From NCBI RefSeq assembly GCF_000353285.1, contig NZ_KB731324.1, forward strand, positions 638,577-702,576: a stretch of DNA of 64,000 bases. Reading direction: 5' to 3'. The position numbers and the translations under genes were made by a program. Under the pieces are notes generated by a model, which did no database searches, had not been told where the DNA came from, and was given only the letters and a program-made list of their open reading frames with translations. Each line of letters starts with the position of its first letter. The stretch's first letter is position 1. Below are positions 53,317-62,175 of this stretch, piece by piece. The DNA is from Leptolyngbya boryana PCC 6306 (GTDB lineage Bacteria; Cyanobacteriota; Cyanobacteriia; Leptolyngbyales; Leptolyngbyaceae).

Positions 53317-55365
53317 ATGAAAAAAATAGCGCTCATTGCTTCTAGACATTGGAAGGCTTTGCTTGGTCTGAATGCAGTTGTAATATTCGGGACTTTAGGA
53401 GCGATGTTGACCACTCCTAAAGTTTGGACTGCTCAGGCGCAACTGATTCTGCCTTCCTCGAATGGAGGCAACCTTGATGCCAACTTGGGAACTTTAGGGT
53501 CTTACCGTAACAGTGATCCGAGCTTTTCACCTCAAGTCAATCCCCTGAAAATTCAAGAGGCAATTCTCACCAGTGATGCGATTCTTGAAAAGGCTTGGGC
53601 AGCTGATCCTGAGAGAGATGCAGCGAATAAACCTCGCAATTATGGACAATTCTTTGAAGTGACTTCGCTCGAACAAACGAGCGTCATGCTGCTCTCTGTC
53701 ACAGGCTCAAGTCCCGATATCGCCAAGCAGCGCGCAGAAGCAATTCTCAATGCCTATCGGCAGCGTCTGAGCGAGCTTCGTCAGGCGAATAACAATACAC
53801 GCGATGGCTTTAGCCAGAAACAGCTTGAACAAGCTCAACGCAGATTAACTGAAGCGCAGACTGCTCTAGCACAATTCAAACAATCGACAGGATTGGTAAA
53901 TAACGAAGAACAAACGAAAGGGCTAGTTGGAACGATCAATACTTTAGAAGCGGCACAGGCACAGGTTCAGGCGGAATCTCAAGCGACTCGCGATCGCGCA
54001 AATACTCTCGCGACTCGATTAAATCTTTCGCCTACTGACGCAGTTCAAGCCTTAGGATTAGACCAAAACGAAGATTATAAAGAGCTTCGCAGTAAGCTCA
54101 CTGAAGTTGAGTCTACGCTGGGCAAATTGCGATCGACATTCACAGATCGCAGCCCTCAAGTACAAAGAGCGATCGTAGAGCGGGACACTTTGCGGAACCA
54201 GCTTCAGCAGTATGTTGGGCAAGCCGCAGGTCGAATTTCTGCCAATACAGATTTTACAACTGGGGCGGAAGGACGGAATACCTTAATTGAACAATTAGTG
54301 TTAGCTGAAACGAATGCGAATGGACAACAACGACAAGCAGAACAACTCCAGCAACAAATTGATCAGCGGCAAAAAATCCTCAATCAATTGCCTGCAAATC
54401 AAGCAAAACTCAATGCTTTACAGCGACAGGCAGATGTTGCGGAAGGAGTTTATAAAGGGCTAGTTGCACAGACACAACAATCAAATATTGATGCTTTTAA
54501 TGCGTATCCAAATATTCAGGAGTTAAACGCACCCTTTGTTGATGCTAAACCATCGAGTCCAAAGAAATCTCTGATAGCAATTAATGCGCTTCTTGCTTCT
54601 GTCATTGGGAGCATTGCACTAATATTGTTGCTCGAAGCTCGCAATCCATTGCTGACTCCCAAAGATTTGCAGGCTCTAAAATTTTCGCTTGTTGCTCGTA
54701 TTCCCAAACTAAAGCGACTGGCAATAGAGCCGAATTCAAGCTTTGAAGGTGAGATCGAGTTTCAGCGAGTAGCGTCAGCGATTAGTCTTCAACCGCTGAA
54801 AGGGATACGACTGTTAATTGCAAGTGCGATAACGGGTGAGGGAAAAACGACAGTAGCACTGCAACTTGCTCATGCTTTAACCGAACTCGGATTTCGAGTG
54901 CTGCTGGTTGACGGAGATTTTCGTAAAGCTCAGTTAAGTCATCAACTTGGTTACTTGAGCGATCGCTCAGTTGGAGATCAAGTCATTTCGTTGCAACCTA
55001 ATCTCGATTTTGTGCCAACGATGCCTCAGACTGGCAAGATTGTCGATTTAGTCAAACGGGGACGATTTGAACGTTACTTGGCAGTGGCGGAATCTCAGAA
55101 AGACTATGATTATGTATTAGTAGACAGCGCTCCAGTCAGCTCAACCAGTGAAACTGCACTAATGGCTGCGATCGTGCCTTATGTTCTTTTTGTCGTTCGC
55201 CCAGGAATTAGCGCTCGAAATGTTGTGAATAATAGTTTAGAGCAGTTAACGCAACACCATGCTAAACTGCTAGGCTTGGTGATCAATGGTGTCGAAGTTC
55301 AAGGTCATGCCTATTCGTATCACTCTAATCATGATGATCCTCGTCCATATCGATTATCAAATTGA
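53317..55365 (+). CDS. Wzc-type polysaccharide co-polymerase with BY-kinase domain
   Basis: A 682-residue protein joining a Wzz/GumC chain-length domain with a cytosolic tyrosine kinase. Membrane helices lie at about 16-34 and 425-443, flanking a long coiled coil (140-390). The kinase has Walker A ITGEGKTT near 503, A' LLVDGDFR near 530 and Walker B YVLVDSAP near 600. The C-terminal tail has only a few tyrosines (AYSYHSNH, PYRLSN), fewer than the usual cluster. TAGGAG is 10 nt before the ATG. It controls chain length and export in Wzy-dependent synthesis. Confidence 0.93.
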   Translation: MKKIALIASRHWKALLGLNAVVIFGTLGAMLTTPKVWTAQAQLILPSSNGGNLDANLGTLGSYRNSDPSFSPQVNPLKIQEAILTSDAILEKAWAADPERDAANKPRNYGQFFEVTSLEQTSVMLLSVTGSSPDIAKQRAEAILNAYRQRLSELRQANNNTRDGFSQKQLEQAQRRLTEAQTALAQFKQSTGLVNNEEQTKGLVGTINTLEAAQAQVQAESQATRDRANTLATRLNLSPTDAVQALGLDQNEDYKELRSKLTEVESTLGKLRSTFTDRSPQVQRAIVERDTLRNQLQQYVGQAAGRISANTDFTTGAEGRNTLIEQLVLAETNANGQQRQAEQLQQQIDQRQKILNQLPANQAKLNALQRQADVAEGVYKGLVAQTQQSNIDAFNAYPNIQELNAPFVDAKPSSPKKSLIAINALLASVIGSIALILLLEARNPLLTPKDLQALKFSLVARIPKLKRLAIEPNSSFEGEIEFQRVASAISLQPLKGIRLLIASAITGEGKTTVALQLAHALTELGFRVLLVDGDFRKAQLSHQLGYLSDRSVGDQVISLQPNLDFVPTMPQTGKIVDLVKRGRFERYLAVAESQKDYDYVLVDSAPVSSTSETALMAAIVPYVLFVVRPGISARNVVNNSLEQLTQHHAKLLGLVINGVEVQGHAYSYHSNHDDPRPYRLSN

Positions 55366-55399
55366 TTCTTTTCAGCAGTCTACTCAAAGCGTCAGTCTC

Positions 55400-56749
55400 A
55401 TGAGCCAAAACCAGAACATCGCGACTGTCGATTGGAGTAAGAGCCAGGCAGCGAGTACGAATTTGGGGTATGGCTTAAATGCGTATCAAGGTTTTCGACC
55501 TGAGAGTTTTAGCACTTCGGCTTATCAAAGTAATATGTCTGTGATGAATCCGGGTTTGATTCGGTTTCATAATAGCAGCATGTTGCAAGACTCTAGCACA
55601 CCGGATGGGCTGATCGATACGGCTCGTCGAGTTTGGGATGCGAAGAAAGTAAAAGCTGCTTTAGTGGCTTCATTTTCGTCTTTTAAGCGGGAACAACCGC
55701 AACGGATGATTAATATTCCGACTTGGCCAGATTGGATGGATGCGGATCGGGACGGATTTCTCGATCGCAATCAGTTTGATAACTATGCAAAGCTGTGCGC
55801 TGATTTGGTCAAAATTGTCAACCAAGATGCTCAATTGAAAGTACAGTATTGGGAAGTGACGAATGAGAAGGATGATCACTACTTTACTCAGTTCTATACA
55901 GAGAGTGGCTGGGGTGGGTTGAAGGATGCAGCGAAGCCCGATCGCGTCAATGAACTGGTCACGATTTATAACAAAACTGCGATCGCGATGAAACAAGCAG
56001 ACCCGACAATTCAAGTGGGCGGGATCGGTCTAGCACGCCCCGATCTGCAACCGTTTTATGTTCCGTTCATCAAGGGAACTGCAAATCATCTTGATTTTTT
56101 TACTTATCACTTTTACGCAACGGGAAGTGCTTCTACCTCAGACCAAGATGTGTTTCAGACCACTCGCGCGATTGGCGACTACACTCGCACGATTGTACAA
56201 ACGCTGCAAAATGCAAGCCCAAATCGCACGATTCCAGCCATGTTGGGTGAATATAACATTAGCTGGACATGGGAAACTCGCGATCCCCGCATGATCAATC
56301 ATAAAGGGGTTGTGTTTGATGCGTTAACGATGGTCAGTGCCCTCTCAAATGGTGCGACTGCAACCTTGACTTGGAACGAGAAAGATGGCGTTTACGGCAA
56401 AATGGACGATAGCAGTCAGATGCGTCTGGGAGGCAAATTCTTACAATTGTTGAATCAATTCATGATTGGCGATCGCGTCTCGACAAAAACTGCTCCTGAC
56501 AGCGCTATTACGACTTTTGCTGTGAATAATGCTGCTTTGGGATACAAGTCTTACTTGCTGATTAACTCCTCAAATGATTTGCAGCAAGTTCAACTCGATT
56601 TTGCCGGATGGCAGCCCACTCAATCGACGTTAGAGACATATACGATCTCGGCTTCAGGCTATCTCAACAAAACTGTTAACTGGTCGGAACTTAACAGTGG
56701 ATTTGCGATGCCTGCTAGCTCTGTGATGTTATTCACATTTACAAAATAA
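55400..56749 (+). CDS. Clan GH-A glycosidase-like protein (GH39-like)
   Basis: A 449-residue protein with a TIM-barrel glycosidase pattern. The likely acid/base Glu156 is in YWEVTNEKDD, the likely nucleophile Glu284 in AMLGEYNISW, a spacing seen in clan GH-A. DADRDGFLDRNQF (114-126) looks like an EF-hand-type calcium loop. The C-terminal part (380-449) is a beta-sandwich-like tail. I start at the ATG at 55400, 34 bp after the kinase; an upstream frame from 55286 overlaps the kinase and adds a hydrophobic segment. No clear signal peptide. It probably trims or remodels the exopolysaccharide. Confidence 0.75.
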   Translation: MSQNQNIATVDWSKSQAASTNLGYGLNAYQGFRPESFSTSAYQSNMSVMNPGLIRFHNSSMLQDSSTPDGLIDTARRVWDAKKVKAALVASFSSFKREQPQRMINIPTWPDWMDADRDGFLDRNQFDNYAKLCADLVKIVNQDAQLKVQYWEVTNEKDDHYFTQFYTESGWGGLKDAAKPDRVNELVTIYNKTAIAMKQADPTIQVGGIGLARPDLQPFYVPFIKGTANHLDFFTYHFYATGSASTSDQDVFQTTRAIGDYTRTIVQTLQNASPNRTIPAMLGEYNISWTWETRDPRMINHKGVVFDALTMVSALSNGATATLTWNEKDGVYGKMDDSSQMRLGGKFLQLLNQFMIGDRVSTKTAPDSAITTFAVNNAALGYKSYLLINSSNDLQQVQLDFAGWQPTQSTLETYTISASGYLNKTVNWSELNSGFAMPASSVMLFTFTK

Positions 56750-56772: not shown

Positions 56773-57039
56773 CTATTTTGATTTGCGCTTTGACTTTGGA
56801 GGCGTGCGATGTTCGCCAAAGTATTTCTCGCTGCGATAGCGTAGCCAGACTCTCAGAACTTGCGGAATTTTCTCTTTCTGCTCTTTCGTCAACGTGTTGT
56901 AAAGTGCCAAGGCACGTTCTCGTTCTCCTCGACAAGCAGCATTATTATGAGCATCCCAATAGCTACGAGCGACCCGAATTCGGCGACAGACTTCTTTGAT
57001 CAATGCCTCGCCAGTTAAAGGTTCTTCTTGCTTTGTCAT
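56773..57039 (-). CDS. Small basic protein of unknown function
   Basis: An 88-residue protein with a helical core (LIKEVCRRIRVARSYWDAHNNAACRG) and a very basic tail ending RTPPKSKRKSK. It resembles conserved cyanobacterial proteins with no known role. Its start lies about 75 bp from the truncated DUF4280 remnant, which is on the same strand upstream. Basic tail and small size would suit nucleic-acid binding, but no motif proves it. Confidence 0.7.
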   Translation of the reverse strand: MTKQEEPLTGEALIKEVCRRIRVARSYWDAHNNAACRGERERALALYNTLTKEQKEKIPQVLRVWLRYRSEKYFGEHRTPPKSKRKSK

Positions 57040-57090
57040 CTTTTTTGATCAGAATGTACTCTAATCATTCTAGTAGGAATGAAGTCGAAT

Positions 57091-57113
57091 CCCCCCACTC
57101 CCCACTCCCCACC
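57091..57113. repeat. GGGAGTA-type heptamer array, single arm (copy 5)
   Basis: CCCCCCACTCCCCACTCCCC is a run of the same heptamers found in copies 1-4, directly at the end of the DUF4280 remnant. The complementary arm is absent, so it cannot form the hairpin seen elsewhere. Confidence 0.6.
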
Positions 57114-57397
57114 TATGCAATATTTACTTTAAACTGCCCAGGAGTATTAATCTTGATAATGCCTCCAAATGCACAGTTACAGATTGCCGTGTTCGGGAGA
57201 GCAGGGATTTTGCCAATTTTTACTTTAATAGCACCAGGTGACCAAGGGCTGACAATTGCAGGGATACAAGGCATGGGTGTCAGGACTCCAAAAGCAGCAG
57301 CAGTTGCAGCAGCTACGGCTGGATTTGCGATCGAACTACACATGGCAAACGGCAAAATATTCGCCATTGGGATATTGTCGAAAATTGTTGCGGCGAG
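57113..57397 (-). pseudogene. N-terminally truncated DUF4280 (PAAR-like) protein
   Basis: The minus strand encodes a peptide with the DUF4280 core: PLAATIFDNIPMANILPF, FAMCSSIANPAVAAATAAA, TPMPCIPAIVSPWSPGA and CNCAFGGIIKINTPGQ. Complete members have about 30 more residues at the N-terminus, including the K-C-S-F segment, but here similarity stops at about 57,397 and a TGA follows in frame. The ATG at 57367 would allow an 84-residue product. DUF4280 proteins are PAAR-like spike tips of contractile injection systems. With its start lost, it is probably non-functional. Confidence 0.8.
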
Positions 57398-58181
57398 CGG
57401 AGTTGCTCACGAGATTAATAATCCAGTTGGTTTTCTCAAAGGCAATATCCAACCTGCCCTAGATTACATCAGTGATTTATTTGGACTCATTGATCTTTAT
57501 CAGGAAAGAACTTCTCCCCCTGATCCAGTCATTCAAGCAGAAATCGATGAGATCGACTTAGAGTATATTCGCGAGGATCTTCCCAAGTTGATTAGCTCAA
57601 TGAGAGAAGGCATAGAACGAATCCGGAATATTAGTACCAGTTTACGAACCTTCTCCCGCGCTGATCAAGATCATAAAGTTCCTTTTGATATTCATTCAGG
57701 GCTTGATAGCACTCTGCTGATTTTGAAACATCGATTAAAAGCAGATGATCGCCGTCCAGAGATCAAAATTATTCAAGAATATGGTCAGTTGCCCGCGGTT
57801 GATTGCTATCCAGGTCAGTTGAATCAGGTGTTTATGAATTTGCTGGCGAACGCGATCGATGCTTTAGAAGATAGCAATAAGGGACGGAGCTACGAAGAAA
57901 TTCAAGCTCATCCGAATCAAATCGGTATTTACACAACAGTTGTGGATGATCAATCAATCAAGATTCGTATCTGTGATAATGGCGTAGGAATGGATGACGC
58001 GACTCAGCAAAAAATCTTTGACCATCTATTCACAACAAAAGAAGTGGGAAGAGGAACAGGTTTAGGGCTGGAAATTGCACGACAGATTATCGTGGAAAAA
58101 CACGGTGGTTCGATCAAGGTTCGTTCAACGGTAGGACAAGGGACAGAATTTACGATCGTACTTCCCATTCACGAGAAGTAG
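57342..58181 (+). pseudogene. N-terminally truncated sensor histidine kinase
   Basis: From about 57,397 the plus strand encodes a kinase core: GVAHEINNPVGFLKGN (H-box), NQVFMNLLANAIDALED (N-box), DNGVGM, FDHLFTTKEVG and GRGTGLGLEIARQII. Normal sequence before the H-box (such as E-K-M-A-x-L-G) and all sensor domains are missing; the frame instead runs on into the antisense of the DUF4280 remnant. The core resembles the C-terminus of giant cyanobacterial trifunctional kinases (Ser/Thr kinase, AAA, histidine kinase). The ATG at 57342 lies in the antisense part and could give a 279-residue product, but more likely it is a remnant. Confidence 0.75.
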
Positions 58182-58216: not shown

Positions 58217-58939
58217 CTACAGTATAAATATGTAGCCAACTGTAATCAATAAGCTAAAAATTATACGATTAAACATCGGCTGTGGAATGAGACGATTAAT
58301 TTTGCCACCGACATAGATGCCAATGATAATTCCGGGAATTGACCATAGAAACAAACGCCAAACTTGCGGAGTCCATAGTCCTGCAAATCCGTGACCTGCG
58401 ATCGTAGCAATTCCTGAAAACAGAAAATAGCATTGCATTGTTGCTCTAAAATAGCTGGCTGACCAACGACGCATCACGCCGTAAACCGCGATCGGGAGTC
58501 CATTAATGTTGTAAGCGCCTCCTAAAACGCCCGCAACCAATCCAAAGAAAACGGCATAGCGTTCATGGTGAAGCTGCGGAAACTTAGGAGAAATAAGATT
58601 AAACAGCCCATACAAGATGAGAATGATTCCTAGCCCAAGCTTGACTGTTTTTTCAGGCGCATACTGTAATAGAAGTAATCCAAAGGGAACTCCGATTACT
58701 GTACTAATGATGAGCCTCCAAGCTGATTTGAGATCAATGCTATCCTGATCAAAAATTAGAATCAGTGAACTAATAATAAACCCTGTCAATGCGACAATGG
58801 GAGTTGCTGTTCGCAAACTCATAATCATGCCTAGTAGCGGCATTGCTAAAAGCGCATCACCAAACCCGATCGCAGAACGAATTGAAGTACAGACAAACAG
58901 GATTGATGCTGTTGCGATCGTTAAATCAGTAAGGTTCAT
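58217..58939 (-). CDS. TauE/SafE-family anion exporter
   Basis: A 240-residue membrane protein with about 8 helices of the TauE/SafE family. Members export sulfite, sulfoacetate or related anions. The start has FVCTSIRSAIGFGDALLAMPLLG, with the G-F-G-[DG] motif, and the second half GLVAGVLGGAYNINGLPIAVYG repeats the first (internal pseudo-symmetry). It starts 8 bp after the YeiH-like gene stop, so the pair is co-transcribed. Substrate is inferred from the family and the neighbouring sulfur-type redox genes. Confidence 0.85.
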   Translation of the reverse strand: MNLTDLTIATASILFVCTSIRSAIGFGDALLAMPLLGMIMSLRTATPIVALTGFIISSLILIFDQDSIDLKSAWRLIISTVIGVPFGLLLLQYAPEKTVKLGLGIILILYGLFNLISPKFPQLHHERYAVFFGLVAGVLGGAYNINGLPIAVYGVMRRWSASYFRATMQCYFLFSGIATIAGHGFAGLWTPQVWRLFLWSIPGIIIGIYVGGKINRLIPQPMFNRIIFSLLITVGYIFIL

Positions 58940-58947
58940 GCAAAAGA

Positions 58948-60018
58948 CTAATAAAGGATCTGAATCAATCCATAGCTAGAGATTGAAATGAATAACCAGG
59001 ATAGCGCGCCTAAATACAAAGGTTTTAGTCCAATCTTTTGAATCTGATTTAATCTTGTTTCTAATCCCATTGCTGCCATTGAGATGGTTAAGAGCAACTG
59101 ATTGACTTGTCCTGTCATCGTTTTTATTTGCTGTGGGATTAAGTTCAAGCTATTCAGAAGAATCAAAAGCATAAAATAAACGACAAACCAAGGAATGGCA
59201 ATTCGTGATTTTGATTGAGGAGCTTTAGAAATTGCTCCAAGCATGAGCATCATCGGAACGAGCCAAAGGACTCTTGACAGTTTTGAAATACTAGCAATCT
59301 CGCCACTGACTGAATCTACTTGAAAAGCCGCTGCAAGCACTTGGGCAACTTCATGAATTGAAACTCCACACCATAATCCAAATGCTTCTGGTGTTAAGTT
59401 CAATTGCCCAGAGAGTAATGGATACAAAAGCATCGATATTGTTCCAAACAAGGTGACGATCGCAATTGCATACGTGATATCTTCATCTCCACTCTCGGTC
59501 GTTGTACTTGTCGCAATCACAGCAGAAGCACCACAAATCGAAGTACCAGCAGCAATGAGGCGAGTTAAGCTAGGACTCACGCCTAAGTGTTGTCCAGCCC
59601 AACAGGTAAACCAAAATGTACTCAATAAGGTTGTGATGATGATGAGTAACCCCGTGATGCCCACAGATAAAACCTGCGATAGGCTGAGTTGAACACCGAG
59701 CAGAATGACTGCAAATCGCAGAATTCTTCTCATAGCAAAGTGAATCCCTGCTTGGCGTTTCGGCGCTACGCCAATTGTATTTTGGATGAAAATGCCTAGA
59801 AGAATTGCCAGAATGAGAGGGCTGAAGAGAGTGAAGCCGGGTATCAATCGGATCAGATAAGCGATCGCTGTCAAGCCACAAACGAGCCATACTCCAGATT
59901 GGATCTTTACTAGGCTTATTTTGATTTGAGCAATTGCCTGAGAGAAAACATCACCTTGAAATGCTGTGACGATTTTTATTGCTGCGAACGGTTTAATATT
60001 ATTTGTTTTGTGCCGCAT
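58948..60018 (-). CDS. YeiH/UPF0324-family putative sulfate exporter
   Basis: A 356-residue membrane protein with about 10 helices. GVQLSLSQVLSVG and AAGTSICGASAVIAT are family motifs, and CGVSIHEVAQVLAAAF follows. The YeiH family is annotated as putative sulfate exporter. The first 35 residues are soluble; other starts cannot be excluded. It lies 98 bp after the Mrp ATPase gene, with an intergenic hairpin between, and 8 bp before the TauE/SafE gene. Confidence 0.85.
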   Translation of the reverse strand: MRHKTNNIKPFAAIKIVTAFQGDVFSQAIAQIKISLVKIQSGVWLVCGLTAIAYLIRLIPGFTLFSPLILAILLGIFIQNTIGVAPKRQAGIHFAMRRILRFAVILLGVQLSLSQVLSVGITGLLIIITTLLSTFWFTCWAGQHLGVSPSLTRLIAAGTSICGASAVIATSTTTESGDEDITYAIAIVTLFGTISMLLYPLLSGQLNLTPEAFGLWCGVSIHEVAQVLAAAFQVDSVSGEIASISKLSRVLWLVPMMLMLGAISKAPQSKSRIAIPWFVVYFMLLILLNSLNLIPQQIKTMTGQVNQLLLTISMAAMGLETRLNQIQKIGLKPLYLGALSWLFISISSYGLIQILY

Positions 60019-60058
60019 TACTTTGATTCAATTGACTGATGCAATTCAACAGAAATTC

Positions 60059-60095
60059 GCCTTGCTTTCGGGTAAGATTGCCAACAAAGCAAGGC
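60059..60095. repeat. Perfect 10-bp hairpin between the Mrp and YeiH-like genes
   Basis: GCCTTGCTTT (60059-60068) pairs with AAAGCAAGGC (60086-60095) around a 17-nt loop. There is no T-run on the minus strand after it, so it is more likely an RNA-processing or attenuation site within the operon than a full terminator. Confidence 0.5.
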
Positions 60096-60116
60096 AGTTA
60101 CAGATTGGAAATCAAC

Positions 60117-61214
60117 TCAGCATAGAATTGCGTCTGCTAATTTGTGGATTGAGCAGAATGTTTTGTCAAGTGCTGAAGCGATGTTGAGAAAGACTTGCCC
60201 AACAAATGATGTTGGATCAGTCAAGGTTACGGGTCTTCCAGAGTCACCCGCCGCACAAATTCGAGCCTCAATCGGAACTTGTCCCAGTAGAGGAGTTTGC
60301 AGTTCTTCTGCAAGTTGTTGTCCCCCACCACTGCCGAAAATCGGAGTCGGCTCACCACAATGCCCACAGCGCAAATAGCTCATGTTTTCAATGATGCCGA
60401 GTACTGGAATTCCGACTCGACGAAACATATGAATACTGCGGCGAACATCTGCGATCGCGACTTGCTGCGGTGTGGTGACGAGTAATACGCCACAGATGGG
60501 ACTCTCTTGAACGATCGTGATTTGAGCATCTCCTGTCCCGGGTGGTAAATCAATCAGCAGGTAGTCTAGATCGCCCCATTCCACATCTTGGATAAACTGA
60601 GTGATGACCTTGTGCAGCACAGGTCCGCGCCATGCTAGCGGATGATCGGGTTCTGCTAGAAGCCCAACTGACATGACTTTGATACCGTGGGCTTCTAAAG
60701 GCAGAAATCGCGTTCCTTCAGCAGTTTCGATCGTCTTCACCTCAGAATGTCCCAATCCCAACATCTGTGGAATATTTGGACCATAGATATCTGCATCCAG
60801 CAGCCCGACTTTTGCGCCTTGTAGGCTTAGCGCGATCGCAAGATTGACAGAAGTGGTTGATTTTCCAACTCCACCTTTACCACTCGAAATCGCTAATGTC
60901 GTTCTCACGCCTGGAATCGTGCAGAGTTGAACATAACTCTTCTTACACCAAGTGAGTTGTGAAAGCACAGTCTCAATCTGATGTTTCAAATCGTGCTGAT
61001 GCTTTCCAACATACAGCCGCAGGTAAACATAGTTATCCACCACTCTGAGATTACGAACCATGCCTAAACTCACAATATTGTTGTTGAGAACAGGTTCAAT
61101 AATGGTTTTGAGCAGTTTAGTCACCGCTTGTTGGCGTGCTTCAGCAATCAGATCAGGTGGATCTGTTTCGGGAAGGTCATGAGTCGTCTGGAAGGGAGAA
61201 CGATGATTAGGCAT
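60117..61214 (-). CDS. Mrp/NBP35 (ApbC) P-loop ATPase, iron-sulfur carrier
   Basis: A 365-residue protein with an N-terminal MIP18/DUF59 domain (residues 25-95) and a P-loop ATPase with the deviant Walker A SSGKGGVGKSTT, GLLDADIYGPNIPQMLG, DLPPGTGDAQ and the CxxC in RCGHCGEPTP that binds a bridging Fe-S cluster. I start at the ATG at 61214, which overlaps the HEAT-gene stop by 8 bp; a start at 61277 would lie inside that gene. ApbC proteins load clusters onto target enzymes; the adjacent AprB-like ferredoxin with two clusters is an obvious client. Confidence 0.93.
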   Translation of the reverse strand: MPNHRSPFQTTHDLPETDPPDLIAEARQQAVTKLLKTIIEPVLNNNIVSLGMVRNLRVVDNYVYLRLYVGKHQHDLKHQIETVLSQLTWCKKSYVQLCTIPGVRTTLAISSGKGGVGKSTTSVNLAIALSLQGAKVGLLDADIYGPNIPQMLGLGHSEVKTIETAEGTRFLPLEAHGIKVMSVGLLAEPDHPLAWRGPVLHKVITQFIQDVEWGDLDYLLIDLPPGTGDAQITIVQESPICGVLLVTTPQQVAIADVRRSIHMFRRVGIPVLGIIENMSYLRCGHCGEPTPIFGSGGGQQLAEELQTPLLGQVPIEARICAAGDSGRPVTLTDPTSFVGQVFLNIASALDKTFCSIHKLADAILC

Positions 61215-62175
61215 TAGAGGGTTCTTGTAACGCTTCTTGAATGGTCTGAATGGCGCGTTGAGCAAAGATGCAGACATCGCGATCGGGGTCGTCGAGCGAT
61301 TGCTGCAACGGATTGAGAGCCGCTTTATTTTTCAAAATGCCAAGCGCGATCGCAGCATCTCGTCGGACATCTGAATATTCGTCAGCGAGTGCTTGAATGA
61401 ACAGAGGAAGAGAGCGATCATCTGGAATTTTCTGCAAGGCTTGCAAGCTGAATTTGCGAACTTGCCAATGATCATCTTTTAAGGCAGCTTCTAGAGGCGC
61501 GATCGCGGTTTTGTCTGCATGAATTGCAAGAGATTTTGCTGCATTGCGCCGAACTTCCCAATCTGGATCGTGAGTCAATGCTTCACAGAGACGAGGAACA
61601 ACTTGCTCATCACTGAGATGTCCCAGCGTTAAAGCTGTTGCCCGTCGAACACTTTCATCCGAATCGGACAATAGCGCTAATGCAGGTTGACAGCGTTCGA
61701 CTTGGTTGAGGTAGCGCAATGTTGTCACCGCAGATTCTCGCAAAGCTGGATCGGGAGATTCAAAAAAAGGCAACACATACGGCAAGGATTGAGCGTCATG
61801 AATCTTCCGCAACAGGAAGAGAGTATTCAATTGCAGGTTTAGATCATCTCGCAGTAAAGCATCTAGGAGCAGCAATAAATGATCTGGAGCAATCAGTTCA
61901 CCTAATGCCGATCGCGCTTCGTCTCGGATTTCTTCATCTGGAGACGCGAGACATTCAATCAAGGCTGGAACGGCTGCTGGATTTGCAAGTTCCCAGAGTA
62001 CAGTCACTGCTAACTTTTGGACGAGTAGACTTTCATCTGTTAGGGCTTCGATCAACGGGGTTAGAGCCTCTTCGTCTCCAAGATGCTGTAAGGTTTTGAG
62101 CGCAACTAGTCGATTTTCAACTTGTGGCGATCGCAGCATTTCTAACCAAGGAGCAAGTTCAGAATTCGTGTCCAT
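61207..62175 (-). CDS. HEAT-repeat protein
   Basis: A 322-residue solenoid protein of about ten HEAT repeats, each near 31 residues with patterns such as LVALKTLQHLGDEEALTPLIEAL. PBS-lyase HEAT-like repeats act as scaffolds or protein-binding surfaces, and some relatives are phycobilin lyases. There are few cysteines and no catalytic motif. It lies between the AprB-like ferredoxin (9 bp) and Mrp (8-bp overlap), so it may hold the ferredoxin/flavoprotein complex together. Confidence 0.88.
   Translation of the reverse strand: MDTNSELAPWLEMLRSPQVENRLVALKTLQHLGDEEALTPLIEALTDESLLVQKLAVTVLWELANPAAVPALIECLASPDEEIRDEARSALGELIAPDHLLLLLDALLRDDLNLQLNTLFLLRKIHDAQSLPYVLPFFESPDPALRESAVTTLRYLNQVERCQPALALLSDSDESVRRATALTLGHLSDEQVVPRLCEALTHDPDWEVRRNAAKSLAIHADKTAIAPLEAALKDDHWQVRKFSLQALQKIPDDRSLPLFIQALADEYSDVRRDAAIALGILKNKAALNPLQQSLDDPDRDVCIFAQRAIQTIQEALQEPSNA

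What the first reader, a model, noticed from the sequence alone, without database searches (positions are those of the whole stretch)
57113..58181. Two head-to-head genes share one truncation point
At about 57,397 the DUF4280 similarity on the minus strand and the histidine-kinase similarity on the plus strand end within a few bases of each other. Each gene has lost its 5' part, and the kinase frame reads on through the DUF4280 antisense. The simplest reading is a deletion of a large segment between two divergent genes, or an inversion joining two loci.
Basis: partly seen in the sequence, partly recalled or inferred. Interest (0 to 1): 0.72.

Follow-up and report, generated by a model that had tools for sequence, protein, structure and literature searches.

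The report
Deletion scar of lost injection machine
In a cyanobacterium, the tail end of a gene from a lost phage-tail-like injection machine now abuts, almost base to base, the back half of an unrelated signalling-kinase gene, most likely the scar of a large chance deletion; it is a tidy piece of genome decay rather than a new system.

Summary
DUF4280 similarity (minus strand) ends at 57397 and histidine-kinase similarity (plus strand) begins at 57399. 80 of 80 public DUF4280 loci align from residue 9 or earlier, against residue 37-38 here; 35 of 35 kinase homologues run at least 140 residues further upstream. Both genes lost their 5' ends at one point.

In cyanobacterial relatives DUF4280 is the PAAR-like tip gene that ends a contractile injection system (CIS) operon. 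No sheath, CIS_tube or eCIS_core gene was found in this genome, while 7 of 7 chosen relatives have all three.

Best reading: a deletion with 0-1 base of microhomology removed the operon (13.9-16.6 kb in three relatives) and the kinase's N-terminal half. Former adjacency of the two genes was not found, and no same-genus relative has DUF4280 above cut-off, so rearrangement followed by loss stays open. The open frame through DUF4280 antisense is no evidence of fusion: it is open in 3 of 4 intact relatives. No other genome examined has the junction. Neither stump shows decay, so the event looks recent. Ordinary genome decay.

The parts
57113..57397 (-). 3' part of a DUF4280 (PAAR-like spike tip) gene, 94 codons plus stop; the first 36-37 codons are missing
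   Evidence: Pfam PF14107 67.1 bits from model position 44, 77.7 bits from position 32 in the six-frame search; alignment A3 with four intact relatives
57397..57399 (.). junction: DUF4280 similarity ends 57397, kinase similarity begins 57399; at most one base of shared sequence, judged from relatives
   Evidence: junction 30-mer (up to 3 mismatches) in 1 of 388 genomes, the own one; no BLAST match in 42 family genomes spans it except the own one
57399..58181 (+). 3' part of a histidine-kinase gene: from the phospho-acceptor motif (GVAHEINNP) through HATPase_c to stop, 260 codons, frame intact
   Evidence: PF02518 85.1 bits, PF00512 partial and below its cut-off; 0 of 66 columns conserved at the 94% level changed
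57003..58181 (+). open frame of 392 codons that continues the kinase frame 5' through DUF4280 antisense and into the gene at 56773-57039; in-frame ATGs at 57003, 57054, 57159, 57273, 57342
   Evidence: start list; the same antisense frame is open in 3 of 4 intact DUF4280 relatives
56773..57039 (-). left flank: conserved 88-aa protein of unknown function
   Evidence: 88-93% protein identity in G005, G027, G002, G034, G012
58217..60018 (-). right flank: TauE/SafE-type and PF03601 membrane proteins, followed by an Mrp-like gene; the block is found in G005 and G004 of the same genus

Best explanation
The site is a deletion scar. An ancestor carried a contractile injection system operon on the minus strand, ending in the DUF4280 (PAAR-like tip) gene, with a multidomain histidine-kinase gene somewhere to its right on the plus strand. 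One illegitimate end-joining event with 0-1 base of microhomology removed everything from about codon 37 of the tip gene to just before the phospho-acceptor histidine of the kinase. That took out the rest of the operon and the input part of the kinase. The tip stump is a pseudogene: it has lost a cysteine found in every other member aligned, and its machine is gone. The kinase stump keeps all catalytic sequence but none of the sensor, receiver or upstream dimerisation-helix residues of its family, so most likely it is non-functional too. Shown: both truncations, their common point, the operon context in relatives, and that no sheath, CIS_tube or eCIS_core gene is found in this genome. Inferred: that operon and kinase lay on one stretch, and that a single deletion did it.
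For: Intact DUF4280 in four family relatives starts 36-37 residues earlier; 80 of 80 further loci align from residue 9 or earlier of the 129-residue protein. The Cys at alignment column 12 is in 84 of 84 others and lost here. 35 of 35 kinase homologues run at least 140 residues further 5'. In 9 of 9 loci with cyanobacterial titles, and in G012, G017 and G026 (G026 and L112 are one record), VgrG-like and CIS_tube genes lie upstream on the same strand; in G033 the CIS_tube gene does and the gene between has the size of VgrG but was not identified by a search. Pfam names the genes CIS_tube, Phage_GPD/Phage_base_V, Phage_sheath and T4 gp19 tube. Own genome (99.99% complete): 0 hits to CIS_tube, sheath and eCIS_core, while 7 of 7 relatives in the same calls have them. 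The only DUF4280 in the genome is this stump. No other of 42 family genomes has a match spanning the junction.
Against: No relative was found with the operon and such a kinase side by side, so the ancestral order is hypothetical. No same-genus relative has a DUF4280 match above cut-off (0 of 7; one weak one in G004), so that this type of operon was once here rests on the stump and on other genera. The two flanks are far apart in G005, and on different draft contigs in G004 and G007, which also fits a rearrangement. The kinase stump shows no decay (0 of 66 conserved columns), as a kept gene would; but the DUF4280 stump shows almost none either (0 of 33 columns at the 95% level, 2 of 38 at 90%). 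CIS genes are patchy anyway: 27 of 42 family genomes have CIS_tube, and same-genus G006 lacks it too. Outside cyanobacteria DUF4280 is not tied to this operon: of the other 71 loci, 2 have a CIS_tube match and 27 a VgrG match within the stretch held.
Confidence: 0.72

Rival explanations
1. Two-step rearrangement: an inversion or translocation first joined two distant loci inside the two genes, and the orphaned injection-system half was lost later.
For: In G005 the flanking genes 56773-57039 and 58217 onward lie in the interior of two different long contigs; in G004 and G007 they are on different draft contigs. No relative read shows operon and kinase together.
Against: Needs a second loss event to remove sheath, CIS_tube and eCIS_core genes, none of which was found.
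Confidence: 0.17
2. Assembly error joining two unrelated stretches.
For: Reads were not available; the junction is in no other genome examined.
Against: The junction lies inside a 6.26-Mb contig of a 5-contig, 99.99% complete assembly. A misjoin would leave the other parts of the operon in the assembly, and none of three marker families was found.
Confidence: 0.05
3. The junction made a working gene: the kinase core, started from an ATG inside the DUF4280 antisense (57342 or upstream), is a new soluble, sensorless histidine kinase kept by selection.
For: 260 codons of kinase with 0 of 66 conserved columns changed and an open frame upstream.
Against: The antisense frame is open in 3 of 4 intact relatives too; no Shine-Dalgarno-like stretch was apparent by eye before ATG 57342 (sequence listed); no plus-strand promoter-like match between 56767 and the kinase in a simple consensus scan; the DUF4280 stump is about as undecayed.
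Confidence: 0.06

Closest known systems
PAAR-like DUF4280 proteins (PF14107) of contractile injection systems; compare Cis10 of the Anabaena thylakoid-anchored CIS (PMC8894136, passages read)
   Same: 68-73% identity to intact DUF4280 of four relatives; in cyanobacterial relatives the gene follows VgrG-like and CIS_tube genes
   Different: Here the N-terminal 36-37 residues are missing and no other CIS gene was found in the genome. Whether Cis10 belongs to PF14107 was not tested.
Cyanobacterial histidine kinases with a GVAHEINNP-type H box (receiver-kinase, GAF-kinase, Ser/Thr kinase-AAA-GAF-kinase)
   Same: Up to 67% identity over about 260 residues; HATPase_c intact
   Different: Everything N-terminal of the H box is replaced by antisense of DUF4280
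Deletion pseudogenes and gene-remnant scars in bacterial genomes (general knowledge, recalled)
   Same: Two stumps meeting at one point with almost no shared sequence and no recognised mobile element
   Different: Nothing essential; the removed piece happens to be an injection machine

Membership tests
DUF4280 / PAAR-like spike tip | Match to PF14107 above the gathering score | tested here: met
   67.1 bits against 26.3; 77.7 bits
DUF4280 / PAAR-like spike tip | Complete domain with the conserved cysteines (four, each required for function in IglG; PMC5014421, abstract and passages read) | tested here: not met
   36-37 N-terminal residues missing, with the Cys present in 84 of 84 others. By spacing it is probably the counterpart of IglG Cys64; IglG itself was not aligned here.
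Contractile injection system locus | Sheath, tube, VgrG-like spike and baseplate genes nearby | tested here: not met
   No sheath, CIS_tube or eCIS_core match in the whole genome; a VgrG search was also empty but had no control in that call
Histidine kinase | Phospho-acceptor His box plus HATPase_c domain | tested here: met
   HATPase_c 85.1 bits; the HisKA hit of 23 bits is below its cut-off of 26.9 and covers only model positions 6-25; 0 of 66 conserved columns changed
Histidine kinase | Upstream dimerisation helix and sensor or receiver input domain | tested here: not met
   Similarity starts 3 residues before the His; 35 of 35 homologues continue upstream
Trifunctional Ser/Thr kinase-AAA-GAF-histidine kinase | Pkinase, AAA_16 and GAF domains N-terminal of the kinase core | tested here: inconclusive
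   Absent here by truncation; intact homologues of different architectures are equally close; the tree leaves the window row unresolved

The most novel reading that the evidence does not exclude
Loss of a contractile injection system created, at the same stroke, a new input-free histidine kinase whose N-terminus is encoded by the antisense of the spike-tip gene and which is now expressed and kept.
Probability: 0.06. Interest if true: 0.55.

Novelty: new member of a known kind. Interest (0 to 1): 0.22.

Why it matters
It pins down, in one genome, what looks like the loss of a phage-tail-like injection machine, some form of which is marked by CIS_tube in 6 of the 7 other same-genus genomes held, and gives an exact junction that can be checked by PCR. 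It also shows that an open frame running through antisense of this family is uninformative, since that frame is open in 3 of 4 intact relatives. Beyond that it is ordinary genome decay.

Tried and rejected
Fusion read as real from the open frame: rejected, the same antisense frame is open in 3 of 4 intact relatives. Natural start of either protein at the junction: rejected. Mobile element at the junction: none recognised; the only repeat pair that encloses it is a 13-base, 92% inverted pair (57141-57153 and 57412-57424), not tested against chance. Synteny to recover the ancestral order: uninformative. Kinase beside the CIS locus in relatives: none of this type; weak matches (about 27%) to other kinases in L112/L039 and L141, and two in loci of other phyla, L154 and L186. 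Kinase tree for the parent: 36 rows, no supported sister of the window row. Papers: searches 'contractile injection system / cyanobacteria / DUF4280', 'DUF4280' and 'contractile injection system / gene loss / cyanobacteria / pseudogene'; I saw listings only, except passages of PMC8894136, PMC5014421 and PMC8651086. Nothing seen there describes this locus. Structure prediction was not run.

Limits of counts: the 80 DUF4280 loci are the best 80 by similarity to the window of 564 confirmed in a capped list; L112 and G026 are the same record, so '84 others' (80 plus 4 relatives) is 83 distinct at most. The 35 kinases are those at E 1e-40 or better among loci held, duplicates dropped by identical ends; 15 are cut by the locus edge, so their 5' extents are lower bounds, and extents run from the upstream stop codon, not from a start. 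The relatives in the absence tests (G012, G017, G033, G026, G005, G007, G003) were chosen by me, four because they hold DUF4280; over the family 27 of 42 have CIS_tube. The junction pattern search allows 3 mismatches in 30 bases and would miss a more diverged copy; the BLAST search covers that for the family, scoring at most 15 candidates a genome.

Full report
What is there. The window is G000:C1:638577-702576, in a 6.26-Mb contig of a 7.26-Mb, five-contig assembly rated 99.99% complete. One genome of the same family, G026, has a contig of the same length, with the DUF4280 match at the same place, as a record titled Stenomitos rutilans HA7619-LM2, so the window is cyanobacterial; its own species was not determined. 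On the minus strand 57113-57397 is the 3' part of a DUF4280 gene; on the plus strand 57399-58181 is the 3' part of a histidine-kinase gene.

The breakpoint. Aligned with four intact DUF4280 proteins, the window starts at L-A-A-T-I, after 36-37 missing residues; upstream of that codon (57395-57397) the similarity stops. Aligned with intact kinases, the window matches from GVAHEINNP, codon 57399-57401, and not before. BLAST matches begin at 57399 in four own-genome places and at 57398 or 57399 in many rows from relatives, a few a little later. Only base 57398 could belong to either side, so microhomology is 0-1 base, judged from relatives since the parents themselves are gone.

Both genes really are truncated. 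DUF4280: 80 of 80 loci from public genomes align from residue 9 or earlier, and in the alignment of 85 sequences the cysteine at column 12 is in 84 of 84 others. Work on IglG found each of four conserved cysteines necessary for a DUF4280 protein's function (PMC5014421, abstract and passages read); by spacing the lost one is probably the counterpart of IglG Cys64, which I did not align. Kinase: 35 of 35 homologues continue at least 140 residues upstream, with receiver, GAF, PAS, AAA or Ser/Thr-kinase domains in five of the six scanned; the sixth showed no N-terminal domain at the cut-off of 1e-8.

What the DUF4280 gene belonged to. In G012, G017 and G026, and in 9 of 9 loci with cyanobacterial titles (one is the G026 record), it follows VgrG-like and CIS_tube genes on the same strand. 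In G033 the CIS_tube gene is there and the gene between has the right size but was not identified by a search. Further upstream in G012, G017 and G026 are a very large protein and the sheath; tube proteins were identified in G017. Divergent from the operon are Pvc16_N (G017, G012), AAA (G017, G026) and eCIS_core genes (G017, G012). In Anabaena a machine of this kind has a VgrG-like spike with a density assigned to PAAR-like Cis10 (PMC8894136, passages read). So DUF4280 here was most likely a spike tip, last gene of its operon. Outside cyanobacteria the link is looser: among the other 71 loci, 2 have a CIS_tube match and 27 a VgrG match. From the tip's codon 38 to the start of the sheath frame is about 14.8 kb in G012, 16.6 kb in G017 and 13.9 kb in G026, worked out by hand from coordinates.

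The rest of the machine is gone. The own genome has no match to CIS_tube, Phage_sheath_1 or eCIS_core, where all seven relatives given to the same calls do. A VgrG search was also empty but had no control in that call. In the whole family 27 of 42 genomes have CIS_tube; in the genus 6 of 8 do, the exceptions being this genome and G006. None of the seven other same-genus genomes has DUF4280 above cut-off, so the genus machines may be of other subtypes, and this operon could have been a late arrival in the window's lineage. The missing operon argues against a simple inversion and against a misassembly, both of which would leave it elsewhere.

How it arose. The most economical history is one deletion between divergently oriented genes by end joining with almost no homology. 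I could not show that the two genes were once neighbours: no relative read has such a kinase next to the operon. The flanking genes are far apart in G005 and on different draft contigs in G004 and G007. A two-step history is therefore kept as the main rival.

Is anything still working? The kinase stump changes 0 of 66 columns conserved at the 94% level, leave-one-out; the other rows range from 0 to 8. The DUF4280 stump changes 0 of 33 columns at the 95% level and 2 of 38 at the 90% level, where 20 of 84 others change as many or more. Because the second can hardly work without its machine, lack of decay points to a recent event rather than to function. The 392-codon frame is expected: the same antisense frame has 0 stops in 3 of 4 intact relatives over the same 282 bases. 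No plus-strand promoter-like match lies between 56767 and the kinase, and promoter-like matches in the region are no more than in shuffles (3 against a mean of 3.3).

Verdict. Real, precise, and most likely a deletion scar left by the loss of a contractile injection system, with a decapitated histidine kinase as bystander. Low interest as a system; some value as an exactly placed loss event.

Noticed in passing
window 57089-57114: Short C-rich repeat (CCCCACTCCCC type) between the 88-aa gene and the DUF4280 stump; a 26-base, 96% copy lies at G000:C1:1587622.
   Followed up: no
window 56773-57039: An 88-aa protein without a confident Pfam family, 88-93% identical in five relatives, where its neighbours match none of the window's flanking proteins: a strongly conserved small gene in changing surroundings.
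   Followed up: partly
window 53317-56749: Glycosyl-hydrolase family 39-like protein (55286-56749) beside a chain-length-determinant-like protein (name recalled from its sequence), perhaps an exopolysaccharide locus; the two frames overlap by 80 bases, so the listed start of the second is probably too early.
   Followed up: no
window 58217-61277: TauE-like, PF03601 and Mrp-like genes keep their order in G005 and G004; in G007 and G001 the first two are swapped and the PF03601 homologue is only about 30% identical, suggesting replacement.
   Followed up: partly
L100 (G007:C6:18500-38400): A same-genus CIS locus with VgrG (59%) and CIS_tube (40%) like those of the DUF4280-type operon, in a genome without a DUF4280 match: the tip gene seems to differ within this CIS group.
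   Followed up: no
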